27,913 nt of DNA from Bacteroidales bacterium (GTDB taxonomy: Bacteria; Bacteroidota; Bacteroidia; Bacteroidales; UBA932): positions 1 through 27,913 of the forward strand of contig JAFXUS010000020.1 of assembly GCA_017535125.1 (NCBI GenBank), in the 5' to 3' direction. Of this stretch, positions 5,528 through 20,109 are shown one piece after another. A model generated the notes under the pieces. That model made no database searches. It saw only the letters and a program-made list of their open reading frames with translations, and was not told the DNA's origin. The stretch's first letter is position 1; every line of letters starts with the position of its first letter. A program made the translations under genes and the position numbers.

Positions 5528-5583
<56 letters not shown>

Positions 5584-5600
<17 letters not shown>

Positions 5601-9248: not shown

Positions 9249-11303
9249 TCAGAGCTTCAGTTCCGTGAGGATGCGGTCGAAGTGCGCGTACTCGCGGAGA
9301 ATCCACACGACATAGCGGATGTCCACGTTCACGCTGCGGTTGTAGTCCGGCGTGAAGAGCATCTCGGACGCCAGCGACTCCTTGTTGCCGTCGAAGAGCA
9401 GGCCGATGATCTCGCCCCGGGCGTTGAGGACGGGGGAGCCGGAGTTGCCGCCGGTGCTGTCGTTGTCGGTGATGAAATTGAGGCGCATCGTGCCCGGGGC
9501 CTTCTGCAGGGCACCTAACATTTCAGCGGGAATACAGAAATCATAATCGTCCGGGTCGTGCTTGTCCAGCAGGCCGGCCGCGGTGCTGAAGTAGTCGCAG
9601 TGCACGGCGTCGCGCGGGTCCAGGCCCTTCACGCGGCCGTGGTTGACGCGCATCGTGGTGTTGGCGTCGGGGTAGGGGTTGCGCTTCGTGTCCGCCTGCA
9701 TCGCGTGCAGGGCGTGGGTGTAGTCGCGGGTGAGCGCCGTGATGTCCGGCTCGCCCTCGGCGGCCTCGATGGCCTGGTTGTAGCTCACGATCTTCACGTC
9801 CATGAAGAAGCGCACGAGCGGATCGTCCGCATGCGCATCCAGAAAGGCCTTCATGTCGGCCTCCGGGTCCAGGTAAACGGCGATCTGCGCCGGGTCGGCG
9901 AGCCAGCTGCCGTCCCAGAGGAAGGCGCACATGGCGTCGTACTGCTGGCCGAAGCGCGTCTTCATTTCCCGCTGGAAGGGCCCCAGCATTGCCTCGTCCA
10001 CGTGCTCGTAGAAGGCCTCCAGGGTGTAGCGGAACAGTTCCCGCTCGACGCGGAGGTCCACCTGCTCGTAGTTGCGCGCGGAGGAACGGCGCACGCCGTC
10101 CACCTTGCTGTCGGCGTAGTTGGACGCCAGCACGCTGGTGCGGGAGGCGACAGGCTCGAGCTGCGTGCCGCGGATGAGGCATTCGCGGAAATACTGGACG
10201 TTCTTTTCCGGCGCGGCGACGCGCGCATAGCGGTCTCGCAGGGCCCCCACGGGATCACCCCACTGCGCCCGCCGGGCGGGATCGGCGTCCAGCCAGGCGT
10301 CCAGTTCCGCCTCCAGCCGCCGCTTCTCGTCAGCCACGTGGAAGCGCTTGTAGCACTGCAGTTCGCCCAGATACAGCTCCTGTGCGTTGGAGAGGTTGAA
10401 GAAGTAGTTGGAATACTTGCGGCGCACCTCCGGGTCGCGTTCCATCCATTTCTTGATGATGTCCATGCGCGCCCCGCGGATTTCGGTCTGGACGGGCAGC
10501 TGGACGCCCGTCATGAAGTCCGCCTTGGCGGAGGAGGCGTAGCGGTCGGTGCTGCCCGGGAAGCCGATGATCGTCGTCTTGCTGCCCTCGCGGTAGCCCT
10601 TCAGGGAGATCTTCAGGTATTTGTCGGCGCGCAGCGGCACGTTCTCGGGCGCATATTTCGCGGCGCTGCCGTCGGGGGCGGTGTAGATGCGCAGCAGCGC
10701 GAAATCCCCCTTGTGCTGCGGCCATTCCCAGTTGTCGACGTCACCGCCGAAGGCTCCCACCTGGGCCGGCGGAGCGCCCACGAGACGGACGTCGTTGTAT
10801 TCCTCGTAGAGGGAAATATAGTAGCGGTCGCCCCGCCAGGCGCTGCTGAGCGATGCCACGTAGCCGGTTTTCTCCTCGTAGCGCTTCTCCATGATGCCGC
10901 TGAGGCGGCGCATCATCATCGCGCCGTTGCGCTTGACGGTGCCGTCCGCAAAGAGCTGCTCCACCTCGTCGGTCACATCGACGGTGCCGCGGAGGAACTG
11001 CACGCTGCGGCCCGGGATGGGAATCTCTTCCTCGAGGCTGCGGGCCCAGAATCCTTCTTCGAGGTAGTTGTGCTCTCCGTCGCCGAGCTCGAACACGTCC
11101 GCGTAGGCGACGTGGTGGTTGGTGATGACCAGCCCCTGGTCGGAAATCAGGCTGCCGGTGCCCATGAAGTCAATGGAAACCACATAGTTGGAGAGCTCCG
11201 CCGTCTTCTTGTCCACGGAGGGAATCATCCACATGCCTTCGTCCGCCAGCGCCGTTGCGCAGAGGACGGACATCATCAAAAATGAGGATATTAAGCGCTT
11301 CAT
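9249..11303 (-). CDS. S46-family dipeptidyl peptidase (DPP7/DPP11 type)
   Basis: Periplasmic serine exopeptidase that removes dipeptides from the N-terminus of peptides, part of amino-acid acquisition in Bacteroidetes. The 684-residue product has a signal peptide (cleavage probably after Ala-Leu-Ala, residue 20) and the diagnostic mature start DEGMWMIP. The chymotrypsin-like triad is visible: His64 in TNHHVAY, Asp200 in HKGDFALLR and Ser621 in GGNSGSPV. Spacings agree with characterised S46 enzymes, and a helical cap region lies between Asp and Ser. Whether it prefers hydrophobic (DPP7) or acidic (DPP11) residues cannot be decided; FDGNKESL follows the active site. It is divergent from the TonB/M16 operon across 58 bp, which suggests a shared peptide-use role. 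Confidence 0.95.
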   Translation of the reverse strand: MKRLISSFLMMSVLCATALADEGMWMIPSVDKKTAELSNYVVSIDFMGTGSLISDQGLVITNHHVAYADVFELGDGEHNYLEEGFWARSLEEEIPIPGRSVQFLRGTVDVTDEVEQLFADGTVKRNGAMMMRRLSGIMEKRYEEKTGYVASLSSAWRGDRYYISLYEEYNDVRLVGAPPAQVGAFGGDVDNWEWPQHKGDFALLRIYTAPDGSAAKYAPENVPLRADKYLKISLKGYREGSKTTIIGFPGSTDRYASSAKADFMTGVQLPVQTEIRGARMDIIKKWMERDPEVRRKYSNYFFNLSNAQELYLGELQCYKRFHVADEKRRLEAELDAWLDADPARRAQWGDPVGALRDRYARVAAPEKNVQYFRECLIRGTQLEPVASRTSVLASNYADSKVDGVRRSSARNYEQVDLRVERELFRYTLEAFYEHVDEAMLGPFQREMKTRFGQQYDAMCAFLWDGSWLADPAQIAVYLDPEADMKAFLDAHADDPLVRFFMDVKIVSYNQAIEAAEGEPDITALTRDYTHALHAMQADTKRNPYPDANTTMRVNHGRVKGLDPRDAVHCDYFSTAAGLLDKHDPDDYDFCIPAEMLGALQKAPGTMRLNFITDNDSTGGNSGSPVLNARGEIIGLLFDGNKESLASEMLFTPDYNRSVNVDIRYVVWILREYAHFDRILTELKL

Positions 11304-11308
11304 ACCCG

Positions 11309-11316
11309 TAAAGGTA
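11309..11316 (-). promoter_or_regulatory. -7-like box (TACCTTTA) next to the S46 start codon
   Basis: On the minus strand TACCTTTA differs from TAnnTTTG only in the last base and ends 5 nt before the ATG at 11303, as at the GH2 gene. No well-placed TTG is seen. I found no convincing promoter for the divergent TonB operon in this 58-bp gap. Confidence 0.35.
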
Positions 11317-11361
11317 GTACACTTTTTTCATTTTTTACTTATCTTGCAACGCCTTATAGAA

Positions 11362-14361
11362 GTGTTGACGCCGAAAGTGACCGGATTCAGATCCATATTG
11401 TTGGTGTTCGCATGCCTGTTTTTCTCTTTGGGCGTGCGCGCGCAGAGCGTAACTCTCAGCGGCACCGTGACCGAGCGGAGCAGCGGCGATCCCGTAGGCT
11501 TCGCCACCGTCGTCGTGGAGGCCAGCGAGCAGTGGGCCGTGGCCGACGCCAAGGGCCGTTTCGTCCTGCGCAACGTCACCGTGAGCGAGTCCGTCGTCAA
11601 GGTGGAGTGCCTGGGCTATGTGACCTGGACGAAGGACGTGAAGTTCGGCAAGGACGTCTCCGGCCTGCGCGTCGAGCTCGTCCCGGACAATCTTTCCCTC
11701 GAGAGCGCGGTCATCACCGCGCAGGAGAATGCCAACTCCGCCACCACCACCCGTACGATCGACCGCATGGCGCTGGACCACGTCCAGCTGATGAACGTCT
11801 CCGACATCACGAGCCTGCTGCCGGGCGGCGCCACGGTGGAGCCGAACCTGACGGGCGAGCGCCAGCTGAGCATCCGCGCCGGCAAGGCCGAGACGGACAA
11901 TTCCTCCTTCGGCACGGCCGTCGAGGTGGACGGCGTGCGCCTTTCCAACAACGCATCTTTCAACAACATGACGACGGGCGGTGATTACGTGGGCGTGTCC
12001 ACGCAGAGCATCGCCTCATCCAACGTCGAGTCGGTCGAGGTGATCACCGGCGTGCCCTCCGTGGAGTACGGCGACATGACCTCCGGCGTCATCAAGATCA
12101 ATACCCGCCGCGGCAAGACGCCGTGGTCCGTGACCCTGTCCACGAACCCGCGCACCAAGCAGGTGTCCGTGAGCAAGGGTTTTGACCTGGGCAGCACCGC
12201 CCGCGGCCGCAGCCGGGGCGTGCTGAACGCCAGCCTGGAGCGCACCCGCTCCATCTCCGACCCGATGTCCCCGTACACTTCCTACGACCGCAATCAGCTT
12301 TCGATGACCTGGAGCGGGCAGTTCACGGGTGAGATGCCGCTGCGCCTGTCTGTGGGCGTGACCGGGAACCTGGGCGGCCTGGACGACCGGGCGGATCCCG
12401 ACAAACTGACCGACACCTGGGTGACCCGCCGGGACAACAGCCTCCGCGCGAACCTGAACGCCAACTGGCTGCTGTCGAAATCCTGGATCACGAGCCTCGA
12501 GCTGAACGCTTCCGCGACCCTGTCCGACAACTTCCAGCGTCAGAAGAGCCAATACCATTCCGCGGTCAGCAGCACCTCGCTGCATGCCCTGGAGCGCGGC
12601 TACTATATGGCGGCTGACTACGTCGCGGGCGCCGGCAATCCGGCCGTGCGCATCGCGCCGGGCACGCGCTACAACGTCATGGACGTGGACGACCGGCCCC
12701 TGAGCGCCAAGGTGACGCTCAAGGCGAACTGGGCCAAGAACGTCGGCCGCGTGAACAGCAAGCTGAAGCTGGGCGCGGACTGGACGATCGACAAGAACTT
12801 CGGTACGGGGGCGCATTCCGAGGAGGAGGCCACGGCGCCGACCTACCGCGAATGGCGCTACTGCGACGTGCCCGCGATGACCAACCTGTCGGGTTACGCG
12901 GAAGAGAACCTGATGCTGCGCACGGGCGAGGATGCCCGCCTGAACCTCATCGCCGGCGTGCGCTGGGACAACACCATCATCCCGTCGTCCGCCTACGGCG
13001 TGACGTCGAGCCTGTCGCCGCGTTTCAACGCGAAATACACCTTCTTCACGGAGAAGAGCCGGGGCGGGGCGTTCCTGCGCGAACTGTCGCTGCGCGGCAG
13101 CTGGGGCGTGGCCGTCAAGCAGCCCTCGTTCTCCGTCCTGTACCCGACGCCGAGCTATCTGGATATCAACGTGTTCACCTCTACGGCCGACGCCAACAAC
13201 GTGGTGAACCGGGCCTATTTCGTGATGCCCCGCAGCATCGAATACAACCCGGCGCTGGTGTGGCAGCGCAACCGGCAGAGCGAGCTGGGCCTGGAGGCGA
13301 ATCTGGGCGGGACGAAAATCTCGCTCGCTGCCTTCTACAACCGCACGCTGTTCGCCTACAGCCAGGTCTCGGATTACGACCGCTTCCAGTACACCTATAC
13401 GCCCGTCGAGGCGGTGCAGGGCCTGTTCATCCCGGCGGAGAACCGCATCTTCTCCCTGGACCCGGCCACCGGCGCCGTGACGGTCTCCGACAAGCAGGGC
13501 GTCCTGCCGTCCGTGCAGGTGCCGGGCAAGCTTTATAAGCAGTTCGTGACCCGTTATACCGAAGACAATGACGACAACCCGGTGACGCGCTACGGCCTGG
13601 AGTGGGTGATCGATTTCGCGCGCATCCGGCCGCTCAATACGACCATCCGCCTGGACGGCACTTACTATTATTACCGTTCGCTCTATACCGACATGCGGGC
13701 GTCTTCGCCGACGACTACCGTGGCCAGCGACGGCGGCCCGTACCGGTATATCGGCTATTACTACGGCAACAATTTCCTGACGAACGGCAAGGAGACGCGC
13801 ACGCTGCGTACGAACGTGACCATCACCACCAACATCCCGCGGGCGCGCATGATCATCTCCCTGAAGCTGGAGAGCTGCCTGGTCAACTATTCCCGCAGCC
13901 TGAGCGAACGGGTGGACGGCAGCGCCCGGAGCTACGTCCTGGCCGACCGCACCGACCTCCTGTCGCTGACCGACGGCTCGGTTTACGACGAGAACGGCTG
14001 CTACACCGTCTTCTACCCGGATACATACTGCTCCTTCGACGATCCCACGCCGCGGCCCTTCCTGGAGGACCTCCAGCGGGCGCGCCGGGAGAATCCGGCG
14101 CTATACGCCGACCTGTCCCGCCTGGTCGAGGCCGGCACGACGTACAATTATACCTTCCTGAAGGACTGGGTCTCGCCCTACTTCAGCGTCAACTTCAGCG
14201 TGACCAAGGAGATCGGGGACCTCGCGTCCATCTCCTTCTACGCCAACAACTTCTTCAATAACATGGGGCAGGTGTACTCGACCCGTACGGGTACCTGGAG
14301 CTCCGTGACTTCCTACATCCCCCGTTTCCACTACGGGTTGACGGTCCGATTTAATTTTTAA
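11362..14361 (+). CDS. TonB-dependent outer-membrane receptor with carboxypeptidase-like N-domain
   Basis: The roughly 999-residue receptor has a signal peptide (FRSILLVFACLFFSLGVRAQ), then a carboxypeptidase-regulatory-like domain (about 30-115; TLSGTVTERSSGDPVGFATV), a plug domain (about 120-260; VEVDGVRL, VESVEVITGVPSVEYGD, SGVIKINTRRG) and a large beta-barrel ending FHYGLTVRFNF. Energised by TonB, it would import a bulky ligand into the periplasm. It is not followed by SusD, so it is not a standard SusC/RagA pair. The start is uncertain: the frame has no ATG after 11233, which lies inside the S46 gene, so GTG 11362, TTG 11365 or GTG 11377 must be used. It is first in a four-gene operon; the next gene starts 12 nt later. 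Confidence 0.93.
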   Translation: MLTPKVTGFRSILLVFACLFFSLGVRAQSVTLSGTVTERSSGDPVGFATVVVEASEQWAVADAKGRFVLRNVTVSESVVKVECLGYVTWTKDVKFGKDVSGLRVELVPDNLSLESAVITAQENANSATTTRTIDRMALDHVQLMNVSDITSLLPGGATVEPNLTGERQLSIRAGKAETDNSSFGTAVEVDGVRLSNNASFNNMTTGGDYVGVSTQSIASSNVESVEVITGVPSVEYGDMTSGVIKINTRRGKTPWSVTLSTNPRTKQVSVSKGFDLGSTARGRSRGVLNASLERTRSISDPMSPYTSYDRNQLSMTWSGQFTGEMPLRLSVGVTGNLGGLDDRADPDKLTDTWVTRRDNSLRANLNANWLLSKSWITSLELNASATLSDNFQRQKSQYHSAVSSTSLHALERGYYMAADYVAGAGNPAVRIAPGTRYNVMDVDDRPLSAKVTLKANWAKNVGRVNSKLKLGADWTIDKNFGTGAHSEEEATAPTYREWRYCDVPAMTNLSGYAEENLMLRTGEDARLNLIAGVRWDNTIIPSSAYGVTSSLSPRFNAKYTFFTEKSRGGAFLRELSLRGSWGVAVKQPSFSVLYPTPSYLDINVFTSTADANNVVNRAYFVMPRSIEYNPALVWQRNRQSELGLEANLGGTKISLAAFYNRTLFAYSQVSDYDRFQYTYTPVEAVQGLFIPAENRIFSLDPATGAVTVSDKQGVLPSVQVPGKLYKQFVTRYTEDNDDNPVTRYGLEWVIDFARIRPLNTTIRLDGTYYYYRSLYTDMRASSPTTTVASDGGPYRYIGYYYGNNFLTNGKETRTLRTNVTITTNIPRARMIISLKLESCLVNYSRSLSERVDGSARSYVLADRTDLLSLTDGSVYDENGCYTVFYPDTYCSFDDPTPRPFLEDLQRARRENPALYADLSRLVEAGTTYNYTFLKDWVSPYFSVNFSVTKEIGDLASISFYANNFFNNMGQVYSTRTGTWSSVTSYIPRFHYGLTVRFNF

Positions 14362-14373
14362 TCATAGTTCGAT

Positions 14374-15690
14374 ATGAAAAAGTTACTCATTCTCCTCTCC
14401 GCAGCGGTCCTGGCCCTGTCCTTCGCCGCTTGCGAACAGCTTCCCAAGCTGGTGTCCGTGACGGTCCAGCTGAAGTATCAGGGTGCCGCCCTCGCGGAGG
14501 CCGGCGTGCCCGTGTCCATCGTTTCGGACGCCGGCGTCCGCTATGAGTCGCCGACCGACGCCAGCGGTGTGGCCGCTTTCCAGCTGCCGCTGGGCACCTA
14601 TACCGCTTCCGTGACCTGGAAGATGGCTGCCGATGGTGTCTATGCCGTCTATAACGGCTCCACGTCCAACGTGGTCGCCGCTGCCGAGGGCGCGACGGCC
14701 TACACGATCGACCTGCAGCGCGTGGAGAGACAGCAGATCGTCATCAAGGAGCTCTATTTCGGCGGCTGCACCAACCCCGAGACCAGCAAGGGCTACACGA
14801 ACGACGCCTACGTGATCCTGTACAACAACTCCGACGTCGAGGCCGACGCCAGCGACATCGTGTTCTGCTTCTCGGCTCCGTACAACGGCAACGGTACCAA
14901 CAAGTACTATACGGACGGCAAGCTGAGCTATGAGAACGCCGACTGGATCCCTTCCTACGGCGCCATCTGGTGGTTCACTTCGTCGGTGAGGATCCCTGCG
15001 TACTCGCAGGTCGTCGTGGCCATCTTCGGCGCCATCGACCACACCCAGACGGTCTCCACCTCCGTGAACCTGGCCAACTCCGCCTACTACTGGATGTCCA
15101 ACAGCGCGATCAATCCGCCTTATACGAACGCCAAGTATGCCGCGGCGGACGTAATCCCTTCCGCCAACTACCTGACCTGCTCGCCGTTCACCAAGGGCAA
15201 CGCCTGGGCCATGAGCAACTCTTCGCCTGCCTTCTACATCGGCCGCATGAGTTCTTCCGAGGCGAAGGCCCTCAGCGAGAACAAGGACGCCTATGACCAG
15301 ACGCTCGGTACCACCGAGGCGATGTACGTGGTCAAGTTCCCGAAGGCCAAGGTGGTGGACGCCGTCGAGGTCTGGTCCACGGCCAACGTGGCCAAGAGCC
15401 AGGTCCGCTTCTCCGCCGACATCAATACCGGTTACGTGGCCGTGACCAACAACAAGGGCTACACCGTCTATCGCAACGTGGACAAGGAGGCGACCGAGGC
15501 GCTCGCCGAGAACGCCGGCAAGCTCGTCTATGACTACGCGGGCGGTACCACCGACGTGGAGGGTACCACCGATCCTTCCAACATCGACGCCGAGGCTTCG
15601 ATCGCGAGGGGCGCCCACATCATTTACTCCGAGACCAACGACACCGCCAAGGATTTCCACCAGCGGAAAGTCGCTTCCCTGAAGAAGTAA
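14374..15690 (+). CDS. DUF4876-type lipoprotein
   Basis: The 438-residue protein has a lipoprotein signal peptide with Cys20 in LSFAACEQ, so it is probably anchored in the outer membrane. Residues about 25-115 look like a prealbumin/carboxypeptidase-like beta-sandwich (TVQLKYQGAALAEAGVPVSI, LPLGTYTASVTWK). The DUF4876 core follows, beginning QQIVIKELYFGGCTNPETSK, with YVILYNNSD and later NKGYTVYRNVD. The core resembles a lamin-tail-like Ig fold; that is an inference. No enzymatic motif is seen. In this place, right after a TonB receptor where SusD would usually sit, a role as ligand-capturing surface partner is plausible but unproven. Confidence 0.82.
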   Translation: MKKLLILLSAAVLALSFAACEQLPKLVSVTVQLKYQGAALAEAGVPVSIVSDAGVRYESPTDASGVAAFQLPLGTYTASVTWKMAADGVYAVYNGSTSNVVAAAEGATAYTIDLQRVERQQIVIKELYFGGCTNPETSKGYTNDAYVILYNNSDVEADASDIVFCFSAPYNGNGTNKYYTDGKLSYENADWIPSYGAIWWFTSSVRIPAYSQVVVAIFGAIDHTQTVSTSVNLANSAYYWMSNSAINPPYTNAKYAAADVIPSANYLTCSPFTKGNAWAMSNSSPAFYIGRMSSSEAKALSENKDAYDQTLGTTEAMYVVKFPKAKVVDAVEVWSTANVAKSQVRFSADINTGYVAVTNNKGYTVYRNVDKEATEALAENAGKLVYDYAGGTTDVEGTTDPSNIDAEASIARGAHIIYSETNDTAKDFHQRKVASLKK

Positions 15691-15700
15691 ACCGTATCCC

Positions 15701-17284
15701 ATGCGCCTTCGCATCCTTTTGCTGACATGCTTTGTCCTGGCTTCCGCCTCCGTGGCGGGAGCCGGGGACAAGGATGTCCGTGACTTCCGCTACGTGAAAG
15801 ACACCACCCCTGCGCTGCAGCTCTCCAATCCGGCGGCGCTCTCCGGCTGGTCCGGCCGGCTGTCTTCCGTGGTGCTGGAGGGTACGAAAGGGAATGGCGC
15901 CGTCGTGCCCCTGAACGGTTCGCACGACGATTTCAGCCTGTCCGCTGGCACGGAGTCCTATTTCCGGATGAGCGAGAAACTCGCGTTCCGGGGCGCGCTC
16001 TCCTGGTCCCATATGCAGGGCCGCGACATGGGCGGTCCCGTCATGATGGACTGGGAGCGGCATCCGGTCAATTTCCTGGAGAGCGACCCGGCCACGGTGG
16101 GCACCAAGAAGCGGGAGAAATACGGCCTTGAAGGGGCCATGTCCCTGTCGCTGGGCCCGCGCTGGGCGCTGGGTCTGGGGCTGAAATATGCCTCCGGCGA
16201 CCAGACGAAAGTCAAGGACCCCCGCTTCTCGAACGTCCTGATGGACCTGGATTTCAGCGTCGGCGCGATCTTCCGCGCCTCCGACGCGCTGCTGCTGGGC
16301 TGGGCGCTGCACTACCGCGACCTGCTGGAACAGGTGCGCGGCGGCATCTACGGCACCGGCGACATCCAGTACTTCGTCCAGACGGACAAGGGTGGCTTCC
16401 TCGGCTCGGTGTCCGAACTGTCGGGAGATTATAACTATGTCCCCACGCAGGAGCACCGACCCATGGCGGACCGCTACTACGGTCTGTCCTTCCAGGCCCT
16501 GGTCGGGGAGCGCTTCGGCAACGAGTTGTCCGTCCGCTACCGGAGCGGCTATTATGGCAAGAAGGCGACTTCGTCCCCGGTCTTCTTCGAATCCATGGGG
16601 ATCGAGGCGTCCTACCGCGGCCTGCTGCTGCTTCCCGCCGGATCCAGCCTGCACCGCCTGGCGCTGGACCTGGATTTCGCGACCCTCGCCAACGATGAGA
16701 ATTCCCTGCGTTACGTGACCCCCACCGGGCAGTCCACGATTGTCGAATATACCGGCCGGAACCGCATCCTGGACCGGATGGACATGGGCGCAGCGCTGGA
16801 TTACCGCTGGTATGCGAAGGCCGACGGCCCCCGTCCGGGCGCCACCCTGGGCGTCCGCGTCGCGTATGCGGGCCGCATGCAGACGACCACGCTTTATCCG
16901 ACCTGGCGCAAACACGCCACCCATACGTTGAGCCTGGACCTGACCGGACAGAAAGTCTGGTCGGACGGGACCTGGTCCTGGATTCTCGATGCGGGCCTGT
17001 CCGCCCTGGCGGGCTTCGGCACGCCCATGCTGGACGGCAGCTATGATGCCGGCGCCAGCACCAGCCTGAAGAGTTTCAACTACTATCTGGACCGTCATTA
17101 CGAATACAAGACGCTCCCGCGTGCGGGGGCATCCCTCGGCTTCACGGCCGCCCGCCGTTTCGGAGCCGGTTTCGAAGCCTACCTGCGGGTTTCCGACGCT
17201 TTCACGATGCTGCTGGCGACGCCGCAGGCCCTGCCCGGACGCAGCCGCAACCTGGCCTGCATCATCCTGGGCTGCAATTTTTGA
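15701..17284 (+). CDS. DUF6850-type outer-membrane beta-barrel protein
   Basis: The 527-residue protein has a signal peptide (MRLRILLLTCFVLASASVAG) and alternating amphipathic strands throughout, with aromatic belts such as ALDYRWYAKAD and FNYYLDRHYEYK. It ends NLACIILGCNF, with a terminal Phe typical of outer-membrane barrels. I recognise it as the DUF6850 group that follows DUF4876 genes in Bacteroidetes, from memory of annotations; this was not checked. Function is unknown. It starts 10 nt after the DUF4876 stop and ends 11 nt before the M16 gene. It could form a second pore or a receptor-associated barrel. Confidence 0.78.
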   Translation: MRLRILLLTCFVLASASVAGAGDKDVRDFRYVKDTTPALQLSNPAALSGWSGRLSSVVLEGTKGNGAVVPLNGSHDDFSLSAGTESYFRMSEKLAFRGALSWSHMQGRDMGGPVMMDWERHPVNFLESDPATVGTKKREKYGLEGAMSLSLGPRWALGLGLKYASGDQTKVKDPRFSNVLMDLDFSVGAIFRASDALLLGWALHYRDLLEQVRGGIYGTGDIQYFVQTDKGGFLGSVSELSGDYNYVPTQEHRPMADRYYGLSFQALVGERFGNELSVRYRSGYYGKKATSSPVFFESMGIEASYRGLLLLPAGSSLHRLALDLDFATLANDENSLRYVTPTGQSTIVEYTGRNRILDRMDMGAALDYRWYAKADGPRPGATLGVRVAYAGRMQTTTLYPTWRKHATHTLSLDLTGQKVWSDGTWSWILDAGLSALAGFGTPMLDGSYDAGASTSLKSFNYYLDRHYEYKTLPRAGASLGFTAARRFGAGFEAYLRVSDAFTMLLATPQALPGRSRNLACIILGCNF

Positions 17285-17295
17285 CATAGCCTTTC

Positions 17296-20109
17296 ATGCG
17301 TAAACTCCTCTTCCTTCCGGCGCTGCTGCTCTGTACGCAGCTCGGCGCCCAGCCCGTCGCAGCCGATCCCGAATTCCGCGTCGGCCGGCTCGACAACGGC
17401 CTGACCTACTATCTCTGCCACAACGAACTGCCGGCAGGCTGCGCGGACTTCTATATCGCGCACAACGTGGGCGCCCTGCAGGAGGAGGACAACCAGAACG
17501 GCCTGGCGCATTTTCTGGAACACATGGCCTTCAATGGCACCCGCCATTATCCGGGGAAGGGGATCCTGGAATTCCTGGCCCGGGACGGTGTGCGCTTCGG
17601 CTACAACGTGAACGCGTACACCACGCGGAACGAGACGGTGTACAACATTTCCTCCGTGCCCCTGGTGCGCAGCTCCTTCGTGGATTCGGTGCTCCTGGTG
17701 CTGCACGACTGGTCCTGCGACATTTCCTGCGAACAGCAGGCGCTGGACGACGAGCGGGGCGTCATCAGCGAAGAGTGGCGCCTGCACGACGATGCGCGCA
17801 CCCGCATCAACAACCTGCAGAACGGACTCATCTACAAGGGCTCCAAGCAGCCGTTGCGGACGGTCATAGGCTCTTATGAGGTCATCAACGGCTTCAAGCG
17901 CGAGGAGATCCTGGATTTCTACCACAAGTGGTACCGTCCCGACCTGCAGGCGATCATCGTGGTCGGCGACTTCGACCTGGACGACATGGAGGCTCGGATC
18001 CGGACGCAGTTCTCCGACATCCCCAAGGCCGTCAACCCCGCGCCGAAAGAACGCTACATCCCGCCGAAGCTGACGGAACCGCTGATCGAGGACATGACCC
18101 ATCCGCTGCTTACGTTCAACGGGGTCAAGTTCATTTTCAAACAGCCGTATCCCGACCGCGAAGGCCGGATGACGGAAGAATATTACCGGGACGTGCTCAG
18201 CCGCCAGATCGTGACCGCGGTGCTGTCGGAGCGCCTTCGCCGGCGTGTCCAGGAGGCGTCCTGCCCGGCCCGCTCGGCCGTGGTGGTGCTGAATGAATAC
18301 GAACCGGACTACTACATCAGCCTCTTCACGGTCATGCCCAAGAGCAAGGACGGCATCGCGGCGTGCATGGAATTCACCGCCCGGGAGATCCGCCGGCTGG
18401 TCGAATTCGGCATCAGCGCCGACGAATTCGAAGCGGCGCGCATGAGCGTGTTGCAGCGCCTTCATCTGGACGACGAAGTCAGCCGTGACAACGTGAAGAG
18501 CGAGGCGCTGGTGAAGGCGGCGATCGAGCATTTCCTGCGCAACCATCCGTTGCTGGACCCGACGGAACTCCAGGAGCTTCAGGCCCGTGTGATTGCTGAA
18601 ATCACGCCGGAGAGCCTGCAGGACTATCCGGCCCGGATGTTCCGGGAGAGTGAGGCCATCTATTCCACCTGCTACAACAACGTGGAGGAGCCGGGCATCG
18701 CCCCGACCGTGGAAGAAGTGCGCGCCATCCTGGCCCGCGTGGAGGCGGAGCCGATGGAGGCGCAGTACCTGAGCTATCCCAGGCTGGACCTGAACGTGGA
18801 CGCGGAACCGGGCAGCATCGTCCGCCGTCGCACCGACAAGCGGCTGGGCGGCTTGGAGGAGTGGCTGCTGTCCAACGGCGTGAAGGTCTATTACAGGCAG
18901 ACGGCGCCCATGAAGACCAAATACCATGTGGCGACCAGTTGGCATTTCGATACCGGCTACCGGAGCTACCCGGCGGACCGTCTCACCCCCGCGCGCTTCG
19001 CCGCGGCTTACAACAACCGGACGGTCGGTTTCCGCGGCTGCGACAAGCAGGCGCTGAGGAATTGTCCGGAACTGTCCGGCGTGGACATGCTCTTTCACAG
19101 CCTCCAGAAGTTTTCTTCCCTGGACGTCCTGACCGGCCGCGACCGGGCGGAAACCGCCTTCAAGGCAGCCTGGCTGCTGCTTCAGGAGCCGTATTTCGGC
19201 ACGGAAGGCGGTCTGGAGAAAACCAAGGCGGACAACCTCAGGAGCCTGGGCCGGAAGAAGACCGCCCGCACGCTCTTCGGGGAGAAATATGACCGGCTGG
19301 TCTATGGCGACCATCCCTGGCTGCAACCCATCGACTCCGCCGCCGTGGAGGCGGTGGACATGGCCCTGCTCCGGGAGGTGTACAGCCGGGCCTTCTCCGA
19401 TCTGGGCCACCTGTCGGTCTTCATCACCAGCGACCTGGACCGTGCCGACATCGAGGCGTACGTCTGTAAGTACGTGGCTTCGCTGACGGGGGATTACACC
19501 TGGCAGAAGACCGCTACGGCTTATCCGAAACCTGTGCTGACGGGGGAGAAGCTGATCTCGGAAACCAATCCGGCCGAGTCCGAACCCTTCTCGCAGGTGG
19601 ATTACACCTACGTGGCGGGGGTGAAGACCACGACCCGCAACATCGTACTGTCCGATTTCCTGGACTATATCCTTTCCGCCCGATACCTGAACCTGATCCG
19701 CGAGGAGCGGGGTGGAACGTACCATGTGGGCTTCTCGACGGAAGTCTCGAATTACCGGGAGCTGCCCTGGCAGGGCGACGTGCATTTCCAGACCCGTCCG
19801 GAGATGACGGAGCTGCTGGTCGGCGACGTCCGCGACGTGATGGAGGAAATGGCGAAGAACGGCCCGACCGCCGAGGAGATGGACCTGGCGCGGAAGTACA
19901 TCCTCAAGCGCCACGGCGAGGTCGAGCGCCGGGCGGCATTGTCGCTCGGCGACCAGCACGACCGCCTGCAGGATACCGTGCTGTGGGGCCGTGACTACGA
20001 CTGCGACTACGACGCCCTGGTCCGCGGCATCAAGGCCAGGGACGTGCGGAATCTCGCCCGGAAGTTCCTCACGGGCGACCACATCGTGGAAATCTATACG
20101 GAAGAATAA
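17296..20109 (+). CDS. M16 family zinc peptidase, full-length periplasmic (PqqL-like)
   Basis: Metallopeptidase of the pitrilysin/insulinase family that degrades polypeptides enclosed in a two-half chamber. The 937-residue protein has a signal peptide (cleavage near Gly-Ala-Gln, residue 19). The inverted zinc motif is His72-Phe-Leu-Glu75-His76 in HFLEHMAFNGT, and a further Glu ligand lies in ERGVISEEW (probably Glu160). Motif FGYNVNAYTTRNETVY follows as in active members. The C-terminal half carries the substrate-holding region (REERGGTYHVGFSTEVSNY) and has no second HxxEH. Length matches E. coli PqqL (about 930) and Fus-system FusC. It is last in the TonB operon and ends 4 nt from the convergent BT_3928-type gene. 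Confidence 0.95.
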   Translation: MRKLLFLPALLLCTQLGAQPVAADPEFRVGRLDNGLTYYLCHNELPAGCADFYIAHNVGALQEEDNQNGLAHFLEHMAFNGTRHYPGKGILEFLARDGVRFGYNVNAYTTRNETVYNISSVPLVRSSFVDSVLLVLHDWSCDISCEQQALDDERGVISEEWRLHDDARTRINNLQNGLIYKGSKQPLRTVIGSYEVINGFKREEILDFYHKWYRPDLQAIIVVGDFDLDDMEARIRTQFSDIPKAVNPAPKERYIPPKLTEPLIEDMTHPLLTFNGVKFIFKQPYPDREGRMTEEYYRDVLSRQIVTAVLSERLRRRVQEASCPARSAVVVLNEYEPDYYISLFTVMPKSKDGIAACMEFTAREIRRLVEFGISADEFEAARMSVLQRLHLDDEVSRDNVKSEALVKAAIEHFLRNHPLLDPTELQELQARVIAEITPESLQDYPARMFRESEAIYSTCYNNVEEPGIAPTVEEVRAILARVEAEPMEAQYLSYPRLDLNVDAEPGSIVRRRTDKRLGGLEEWLLSNGVKVYYRQTAPMKTKYHVATSWHFDTGYRSYPADRLTPARFAAAYNNRTVGFRGCDKQALRNCPELSGVDMLFHSLQKFSSLDVLTGRDRAETAFKAAWLLLQEPYFGTEGGLEKTKADNLRSLGRKKTARTLFGEKYDRLVYGDHPWLQPIDSAAVEAVDMALLREVYSRAFSDLGHLSVFITSDLDRADIEAYVCKYVASLTGDYTWQKTATAYPKPVLTGEKLISETNPAESEPFSQVDYTYVAGVKTTTRNIVLSDFLDYILSARYLNLIREERGGTYHVGFSTEVSNYRELPWQGDVHFQTRPEMTELLVGDVRDVMEEMAKNGPTAEEMDLARKYILKRHGEVERRAALSLGDQHDRLQDTVLWGRDYDCDYDALVRGIKARDVRNLARKFLTGDHIVEIYTEE

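What the first reader, a model, noticed from the sequence alone, without database searches (positions are those of the whole stretch)
11362..20109. TonB receptor / DUF4876 lipoprotein / DUF6850 barrel / M16 peptidase operon: a possible protein-import-and-digest system
Seen: four same-strand genes with gaps of 12, 10 and 11 nt, all four products exported, and the last a full-length M16 peptidase with an intact HFLEH motif. Known: in Pectobacterium the TonB receptor FusA imports ferredoxin, which the periplasmic M16 peptidase FusC cleaves, and E. coli pairs YddB with PqqL. Inference: this operon is a Bacteroidales counterpart. The DUF4876 lipoprotein would take the place of SusD as ligand catcher, and a DUF6850 barrel of unknown role would be added. 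Two components are families without known function, and the ligand (iron protein, bacteriocin, host peptide) is open.
Basis: partly seen in the sequence, partly recalled or inferred. Interest (0 to 1): 0.75.

Follow-up and report, generated by a model that had tools for sequence, protein, structure and literature searches.

The report
Swappable bacterial uptake receptor with peptidases
In gut bacteria of plant-eating animals, a three-protein uptake receptor on the cell surface sits beside two protein-cutting enzymes; the receptor part has been exchanged as a block between lineages while the enzymes stayed, which suggests a modular system that takes in and digests a peptide- or protein-borne nutrient.

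Summary
The operon is real: TonB receptor, DUF4876 lipoprotein, DUF6850 barrel and full-length M16 peptidase, with a divergent S46 peptidase upstream. It is two modules, not one four-part system.

Core module: receptor-DUF4876-DUF6850, present at 30 of 31 DUF6850 genes of a 148-genome Bacteroidales sample. The gene behind it varies: ABC/DUF4857/PepSY, HEAT repeat, met-zincin, S46 or M16. Published B. thetaiotaomicron and P. gingivalis DUF4876-receptor loci are induced by iron starvation.

Peptidase module: M16 follows the core in 31 of 46 loci of the window's clade. In the genomes searched this M16 subfamily appears only there (28 of 29 shown; one at a contig edge). M16 and S46 diverge together (r 0.88), the core genes together (0.83-0.91), across modules 0.31-0.49. 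The core types conflict with the M16 tree (at least four forced changes); in two mapped cases the swapped block runs from the early receptor plug to the M16 signal peptide.

Most likely: an exchangeable outer-membrane receptor complex feeding polypeptide-borne, possibly iron-bearing, cargo to resident periplasmic peptidases. It works like Fus in outline; membership is not shown (PqqU cut-off failed). Ligand, protein import, and iron control in this lineage are unproven.

The parts
9249..11303 (-). S46-family peptidase with a signal peptide (by eye), divergent from the operon; co-diverges with the M16
   Evidence: PF10459 572.5 bits; S46 divergently within 3 kb upstream in 20 of 31 loci with room; S46-M16 identity correlation 0.88 over 153 locus pairs
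11304..11376 (.). short divergent intergenic region between S46 and the receptor
   Evidence: no match to the recalled 19-nt Fur consensus at up to 3 mismatches anywhere in the window
11377..14361 (+). TonB-dependent receptor with N-terminal CarboxypepD_reg-like domain and plug; GTG start 11377 preferred over 11362
   Evidence: PF13715, PF07715; upstream alignment
14374..15690 (+). DUF4876 lipoprotein; BT_1938-like fold
   Evidence: PF16215; best fold match 4q1z = BT_1938, E 7.2e-16, TM 0.55/0.61, rmsd 8.0; model pLDDT 71.8, C-terminal part weak
15701..17284 (+). DUF6850 outer-membrane beta-barrel, about 18 long strands, C-terminal Phe
   Evidence: PF21012; model pLDDT 86.1, pTM 0.84; generic porin/FadL/receptor-barrel fold matches
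17296..20109 (+). full-length M16 peptidase with a signal peptide (by eye), of a subfamily seen only beside the trio
   Evidence: PF00675/PF05193; PDB 9ldy E 2.3e-109, PqqL 6ofs E 5.8e-64, zinc protease 6b03 E 6.5e-36 (that 6b03 is FusC is recalled); other long M16 matches in the same genomes are 28-38% identical
17509..17523 (+). HFLEH zinc-binding and catalytic motif (third ligand Glu153 at 17752-17754)
11820..17360 (+). approximate window equivalent of the exchanged block: receptor from the early plug onward, lipoprotein, barrel and M16 signal peptide
   Evidence: breakpoints in L002 against L036/L037 and L003 against L043, transferred to the window; window against L036

Best explanation
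Two modules cooperate. Receptor, DUF4876 lipoprotein and DUF6850 barrel form one outer-membrane complex (inferred): the lipoprotein helps capture or hold the ligand, the TonB receptor pulls it in, and the second barrel is a structural partner or side channel. The cargo is, or carries, a polypeptide; in the periplasm the M16 endopeptidase and the S46 peptidase cut it into short peptides, releasing amino acids and possibly bound iron or heme. Shown here: gene order, co-divergence of the three core genes, their exchange as a block in two mapped cases, co-divergence of M16 with S46, and restriction of this M16 subfamily to the trio in the genomes searched. From print: iron-starvation induction of related DUF4876-receptor loci. 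Inferred: physical complex, polypeptide cargo, periplasmic digestion, and iron as the gain. Because the same peptidases are kept with two very different receptor types, they are probably general processors, while the trio sets the ligand or the surface face seen by phages and bacteriocins.
For: DUF4876 before DUF6850 in 44 of 44 and the receptor in 37 of 37 loci with room; trio at 30 of 31 DUF6850 genes over cut-off in 148 genomes (the G001 locus is L001). M16 directly downstream in 31 of 46 (cut by the contig end in L006, L014, L023 and nearly whole in L026). In 44 genomes (handles of 44 of the 47 loci; L006, L014, L023 not passed) 29 M16 matches exceed 1000 bits: 28 map to a trio locus; the 29th lies at a contig edge in a genome whose trio contig ends 16 nt after DUF6850. 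In 148 genomes only 2 M16 matches exceed 900 bits, both right after DUF6850; the 51 others are at most 450 bits and none is within 50 kb of a trio on the same contig (threshold E 1e-100, at most 5 candidates scored per genome). Other peptidases follow the barrel elsewhere: S46 (L040, L047), met-zincin (L125 next gene, L142 second gene). Identity correlations: receptor-barrel 0.91, lipoprotein-barrel 0.85, receptor-lipoprotein 0.83, M16-S46 0.88, between modules 0.31-0.49. Iron-depletion induction: PG1019-22 20.8-214.5-fold, BT3625-33 36.7-128-fold, BT1933-39 3.5-7.4-fold (PMC10434189, passages).
Against: 15 of 46 loci of the same clade have no M16, so the trio works without it. The measured relatives are listed with ABC/DUF4857/PepSY or HEAT genes and no M16. 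No ligand, complex or expression is shown for the window's lineage. No recalled Fur consensus in the window. Of the four relatives with a Fur-like palindrome at this promoter, two (G171, G178) gave no FUR-family match, and six feoB regions have no close copy of it (not all reach the feo promoter). Every one of the 44 genomes has S46 genes, often several, and M16 and S46 are common in Prevotella (PMC9045265, passages), so nutrition alone could place them here.
Confidence: 0.45

Rival explanations
1. The trio imports a small iron- or cofactor-bearing molecule (metallophore, heme, other cofactor). The M16 and S46 genes are neighbours under shared control but do not act on the ligand.
For: Related loci respond to iron in print, and the P. 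gingivalis DUF4876 gene moves with HmuY in two other transcriptome tables. Within the window's own 51-row DUF6850 clade L133 and L137 carry an ABC/DUF4857 module in place of M16, in L133 with PepSY_TM. 15 of 46 loci lack M16.
Against: This M16 subfamily was seen only beside the trio, and other peptidases recur behind the barrel.
Confidence: 0.3
2. A RagAB-like oligopeptide importer for amino-acid nutrition: peptides enter through the receptor, and M16 and S46 turn them into short peptides. Iron is not involved in this lineage.
For: S46 divergently upstream in 20 of 31 loci with room and co-directional in 4 other loci; M16 and S46 co-diverge; dipeptides are described as the main entry form of protein nutrients in P. 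gingivalis (PMC8048996, start of abstract in the listing).
Against: No SusD/RagB-type domain in the lipoprotein; related loci listed without these peptidases are iron-regulated.
Confidence: 0.2
3. The M16 is protective: it destroys peptide bacteriocins that parasitise the receptor, and the receptor block is exchanged to escape phages and bacteriocins.
For: Exchange of the surface parts while the peptidases are kept; parasitism of TonB receptors by phages and colicins is recalled general knowledge.
Against: No bacteriocin or phage evidence here; it does not explain the S46 or the loci without M16.
Confidence: 0.05

Closest known systems
Fus ferredoxin uptake (FusA/FusC) and the Ydd/PqqL cluster, 'protease-associated import systems' (PMC6793856, passages)
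   Same: TonB receptor with a linked exported full-length M16; the M16 is detectably related to PqqL and FusC-type structures; variable presence of the protease and other proteases in some clusters, as described there
   Different: receptor fails the PqqU cut-off and shows no detectable similarity to solved FusA/YddB-type chains; extra lipoprotein and extra barrel; S46 partner; Bacteroidales rather than Proteobacteria; no TonB homologue or inner-membrane transporter among the four genes; ligand unknown
BT_1933-1939, BT_3625-3633 and PG1019-1022 iron-responsive loci (PMC10434189, passages); BT_1938 structure 4q1z
   Same: TonB receptor plus DUF4876 protein; HEAT or ABC/DUF4857/PepSY genes as in the wider trio loci fetched here
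   Different: no M16/S46 named in the passages seen; Bacteroides-type trios are very divergent from the window's; iron control not shown for the window lineage
SusCD / RagAB nutrient importers
   Same: TonB receptor with a CarboxypepD_reg-like N-terminal domain beside a lipoprotein gene (the comparison is recalled)
   Different: lipoprotein is DUF4876, not SusD; an added outer-membrane barrel
Bacteroides TonB receptor-surface lipoprotein pairs such as BtuB1-BtuG1 (8blw, title seen)
   Same: receptor paired with a dedicated lipoprotein
   Different: different lipoprotein family and an extra barrel here; no peptidase in that pair (recalled)

Membership tests
Fus / protease-associated import systems | receptor is PqqU (E. 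coli type) by curated cut-off | tested here: not met
   23.5 bits against 1200
Fus / protease-associated import systems | receptor belongs to the wider FusA-related set | tested here: inconclusive
   no PDB chain at E <= 0.001 by phmmer, but that search found no TonB receptor of any kind; the receptor was not modelled
Fus / protease-associated import systems | full-length FusC/PqqL-like M16 with intact zinc site linked to the receptor | tested here: met
   9ldy, PqqL and FusC-type matches; HxxEH-x76-E; linked in 31 of 46 loci
Fus / protease-associated import systems | M16 periplasmic | not testable with these tools
   signal peptide read by eye only
Fus / protease-associated import systems | iron-regulated expression | tested here: inconclusive
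   no recalled Fur consensus in the window; a 13-nt palindrome at this promoter in 4 relatives of one clade only, two of which lack a FUR-family match
Fus / protease-associated import systems | imports and cleaves a protein ligand | not testable with these tools
   needs biochemistry
DUF4876-receptor iron-responsive loci (BT_1938 type) | DUF4876 lipoprotein next to a TonB receptor | tested here: met
   PF16215 over cut-off; 4q1z best fold match
DUF4876-receptor iron-responsive loci (BT_1938 type) | induced by iron depletion | not testable with these tools
   only relatives were measured, in print
SusCD / RagAB | SusD/RagB-family lipoprotein | tested here: not met
   only DUF4876 found by Pfam; only a weak match to a PG1828-lipoprotein model over residues 1-22 by NCBIfam
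S46 dipeptidyl-peptidase Dpp7 (upstream gene) | NCBIfam Dpp7 equivalog cut-off | tested here: not met
   462.7 bits against 1200; PF10459 itself met at 572.5 bits

The most novel reading that the evidence does not exclude
A Bacteroidales protein-import-and-digest system with a detachable head: a three-protein outer-membrane receptor (receptor from the plug onward, DUF4876 lipoprotein, DUF6850 barrel) is repeatedly replaced as one recombination block between lineages, while the dedicated M16/S46 digestive module stays. One peptidase set thereby serves receptors of different specificity, or one ligand is kept behind a face that changes to escape phages and bacteriocins.
Probability: 0.3. Interest if true: 0.78.

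Novelty: new variant of a known kind. Interest (0 to 1): 0.6.

Why it matters
Two families of unknown function (DUF4876, DUF6850) are tied to each other and to a TonB receptor as a nearly obligate trio, so a solved structure (BT_1938) and published iron-response data in a tractable laboratory commensal become handles on both. If the cargo is a protein, import plus digestion would extend beyond Proteobacteria to gut Bacteroidales of herbivores, where plant and microbial proteins are plentiful. The block exchange indicates which parts work together without any biochemistry and gives a natural swap experiment: same peptidases, two receptor types.

Full report
What is there. The four reported genes are present on the + strand with gaps of 12, 10 and 11 nt. 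Pfam gives CarboxypepD_reg-like + Plug, DUF4876, DUF6850 and Peptidase_M16/M16_C, each over its cut-off. The M16 keeps HFLEH and a glutamate 77 residues after the second histidine. The receptor probably starts at GTG 11377 rather than 11362, because many relatives have ATG there. Further out lie a sulfate permease upstream and MauE-domain and CAAX-protease genes downstream.

Relatives. A scan of genome contigs with a DUF6850 alignment gave 47 loci; the record titles name Bacteroidales or Bacteroidia (one Candidatus Equibacterium), and where a source is written it is mostly a ruminant stomach. Of loci with enough sequence, DUF4876 precedes DUF6850 in 44 of 44, the receptor in 37 of 37, the M16 follows in 31 of 46, and S46 lies divergently within 3 kb upstream in 20 of 31 (set aside for lack of room: 3, 10, 1 and 16 of 47). 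In L040 and L047 an S46 gene stands in the M16 slot (Pfam for L040). All 44 genomes searched carry S46 genes, one to six matches each, fragments included, so an S46 gene nearby is less specific than the M16.

Order-wide. In 148 Bacteroidales genomes DUF6850 is over cut-off in 25 and DUF4876 in 27. Of 31 DUF6850 genes over cut-off, 30 have DUF4876 beside them (exception G056:C88); of 35 DUF4876 genes, 4 have no DUF6850 beside them, one of those at a contig end (G044). Larger regions show the receptor upstream in 29 of the 29 re-fetched loci that have DUF4876 (split in L115); the 30th, G001, is L001. Downstream genes of the 30 re-fetched loci fall into an ABC-type module, complete or partial (12 loci), exported HEAT-repeat proteins (6), met-zincin (L125), M16 (L131), or none of these (10) (by clustering; representatives scanned). 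L142, outside the sample, has a met-zincin as second gene. The first two classes match the published make-up of BT3625-33 and BT1933-39, both induced by iron depletion (PMC10434189, passages). In two other P. gingivalis transcriptome tables the DUF4876 gene moves in the same direction as HmuY (PMC10470040, hemin availability, one passage; PMC10101095, one passage).

A trio-restricted M16. In 44 genomes behind 44 of these loci, 29 M16 matches exceed 1000 bits (49-90% identity); 28 map into the trio loci. The 29th (G184:C29) starts 182 nt from its contig end, and in the same genome the trio contig (L038) ends 16 nt after DUF6850, which fits one operon cut by assembly. The remaining longer matches are at most 412 bits and 28-38% identical. 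Three short pieces have 57-78% identity: one begins at base 2 of its contig, one has the position of the cut M16 of L023, and one stands beside an S46 gene. In 148 genomes only two matches exceed 900 bits (G001, G015), both right after DUF6850; the other 51 are 340-450 bits, none within 50 kb of a trio on its contig (E at most 1e-100, at most 5 candidates scored per genome). Below that threshold, M16-like genes of only 406-418 aa lie upstream of the receptor in L115, L124 and L127. So the full-length subfamily was seen only with the trio, while the trio is often without it. By sequence it is nearest to 9ldy (an M16 entry), then PqqL, then 6b03/6brs (FusC by recall).

Two modules that evolve apart. 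Pairwise identities across loci correlate at 0.91 (receptor-barrel), 0.85 (lipoprotein-barrel), 0.83 (receptor-lipoprotein) and 0.88 (M16-S46), but only 0.31-0.49 between the groups (locus pairs are not independent, and proteins under 75% of full length were left out). L002 and L036 share M16 at 94% and S46 at 93% but receptor 58%, lipoprotein 40%, barrel 40%; L003 and L043 share 91% and 92% against 65%, 41% and 42%. DNA identity between L002 and L036 or L037 is 100% up to about residue 127 of the mature receptor (early plug), falls to 60% within some 60 nt, stays low through DUF6850 and recovers around the end of the M16 signal peptide; in L003 against L043 the left step is similar in place (about residue 122) but less abrupt (90 to 73 to 67%). 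Downstream flanks stay mostly at 83-100% in the L002 pairs and at 81-93% in L003/L043 apart from one stretch without a match of about 1 kb; upstream of S46 the loci no longer align well. The DUF6850 tree puts L035-L038, L040, L041, L043 and L047 in one clade (100/100; 78 rows, truncated L045 and L046 left out). The M16 tree scatters the five of them with a usable M16: 5 label changes, 4 forced by well-supported branches, and holding them together is rejected (p-AU 1e-74; 29 rows). I had seen the identity conflict before running that test. The receptor from the plug onward, the lipoprotein and the barrel thus travelled as one block in the two mapped cases, the strongest evidence here that they form one complex; for the other changes the block is inferred from protein identities. 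The peptidases are compatible with both receptor types. Higher conservation of the receptor N-terminus alone does not explain the abrupt step in the L002 pairs.

Structures. DUF6850 is predicted with good confidence as an outer-membrane barrel of about 18 long strands with a short helical N-terminal stretch (pLDDT 86). Foldseek and VIA-align list FadL, TonB receptors, porins and CymA without a specific relative. DUF4876 matches 4q1z, BT_1938 of B. thetaiotaomicron; my model is only moderate.

Mechanism and doubt. The best-supported picture is an exchangeable receptor complex that feeds polypeptide-borne cargo to M16 and S46. Peptidases recur behind the barrel (M16, S46, met-zincin), which favours a polypeptide; iron-linked genes and published induction in the wider family favour iron. 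These can be one story (an iron- or heme-bearing protein, as for Fus) or two (small iron ligand in some lineages, peptides in this one). Iron control is not shown here: the window has no match to the recalled Fur consensus; the 13-nt palindrome at this promoter in L022, L031, L033 and L042 is confined to one clade and occurs nowhere else in those four genomes, two of which gave no FUR-family match.

Against the known. Grinter and colleagues describe FusA-FusC clusters in Proteobacteria, with FusC-type genes linked in 12 of 24 receptor clusters and other proteases in some (PMC6793856, passages). The present system resembles that pattern, but its receptor fails the PqqU cut-off, shows no match to solved receptors (a weak test), and is joined by two further proteins. 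It works like such a system at most; I do not file it as a member.

Noticed in passing
window 11362-11377: Receptor start: many relatives have ATG aligned with GTG at 11377, so the start at 11362 is probably 15 nt too early.
   Followed up: yes
L022, L031, L033, L042 upstream of the receptor: 13-nt palindrome AATGATAATCATT, once per genome and only at this promoter; looks like a Fur-box core (recalled), but two of the four genomes gave no FUR-family match.
   Followed up: partly
L125, L142: The barrel gene is followed by a DUF4953 met-zincin and leucine-rich-repeat proteins, in L125 also by an S46 gene.
   Followed up: partly
L115, L124, L127: A shorter M16-like gene (406-418 aa) lies divergently upstream of the receptor in these trio loci, which have no full-length M16 downstream.
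   Followed up: no
L116: After trio and HEAT gene come a papain-like protein with a weak HmuY match and a short HmuY-family protein.
   Followed up: no
L136: Two DUF4876 genes in tandem before DUF6850, as the paper lists for BT_3631-3632.
   Followed up: no
L010, L011, L034, L044: Where M16 is missing, the trio is followed by the same convergent genes (a lipoprotein-like gene, then genes that look like RseP and Dxr by recall), suggesting a shared M16-less site.
   Followed up: no
L131: Trio followed by M16 (47% identical to the window's), a 4Fe-4S-domain protein and S46 in one direction.
   Followed up: partly
G007:C25:9916-11280: A further DUF6850 gene of window-like score in the genome of L041, a possible second receptor copy.
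   Followed up: no
window 5528-5600: A tRNA gene upstream of the region.
   Followed up: no
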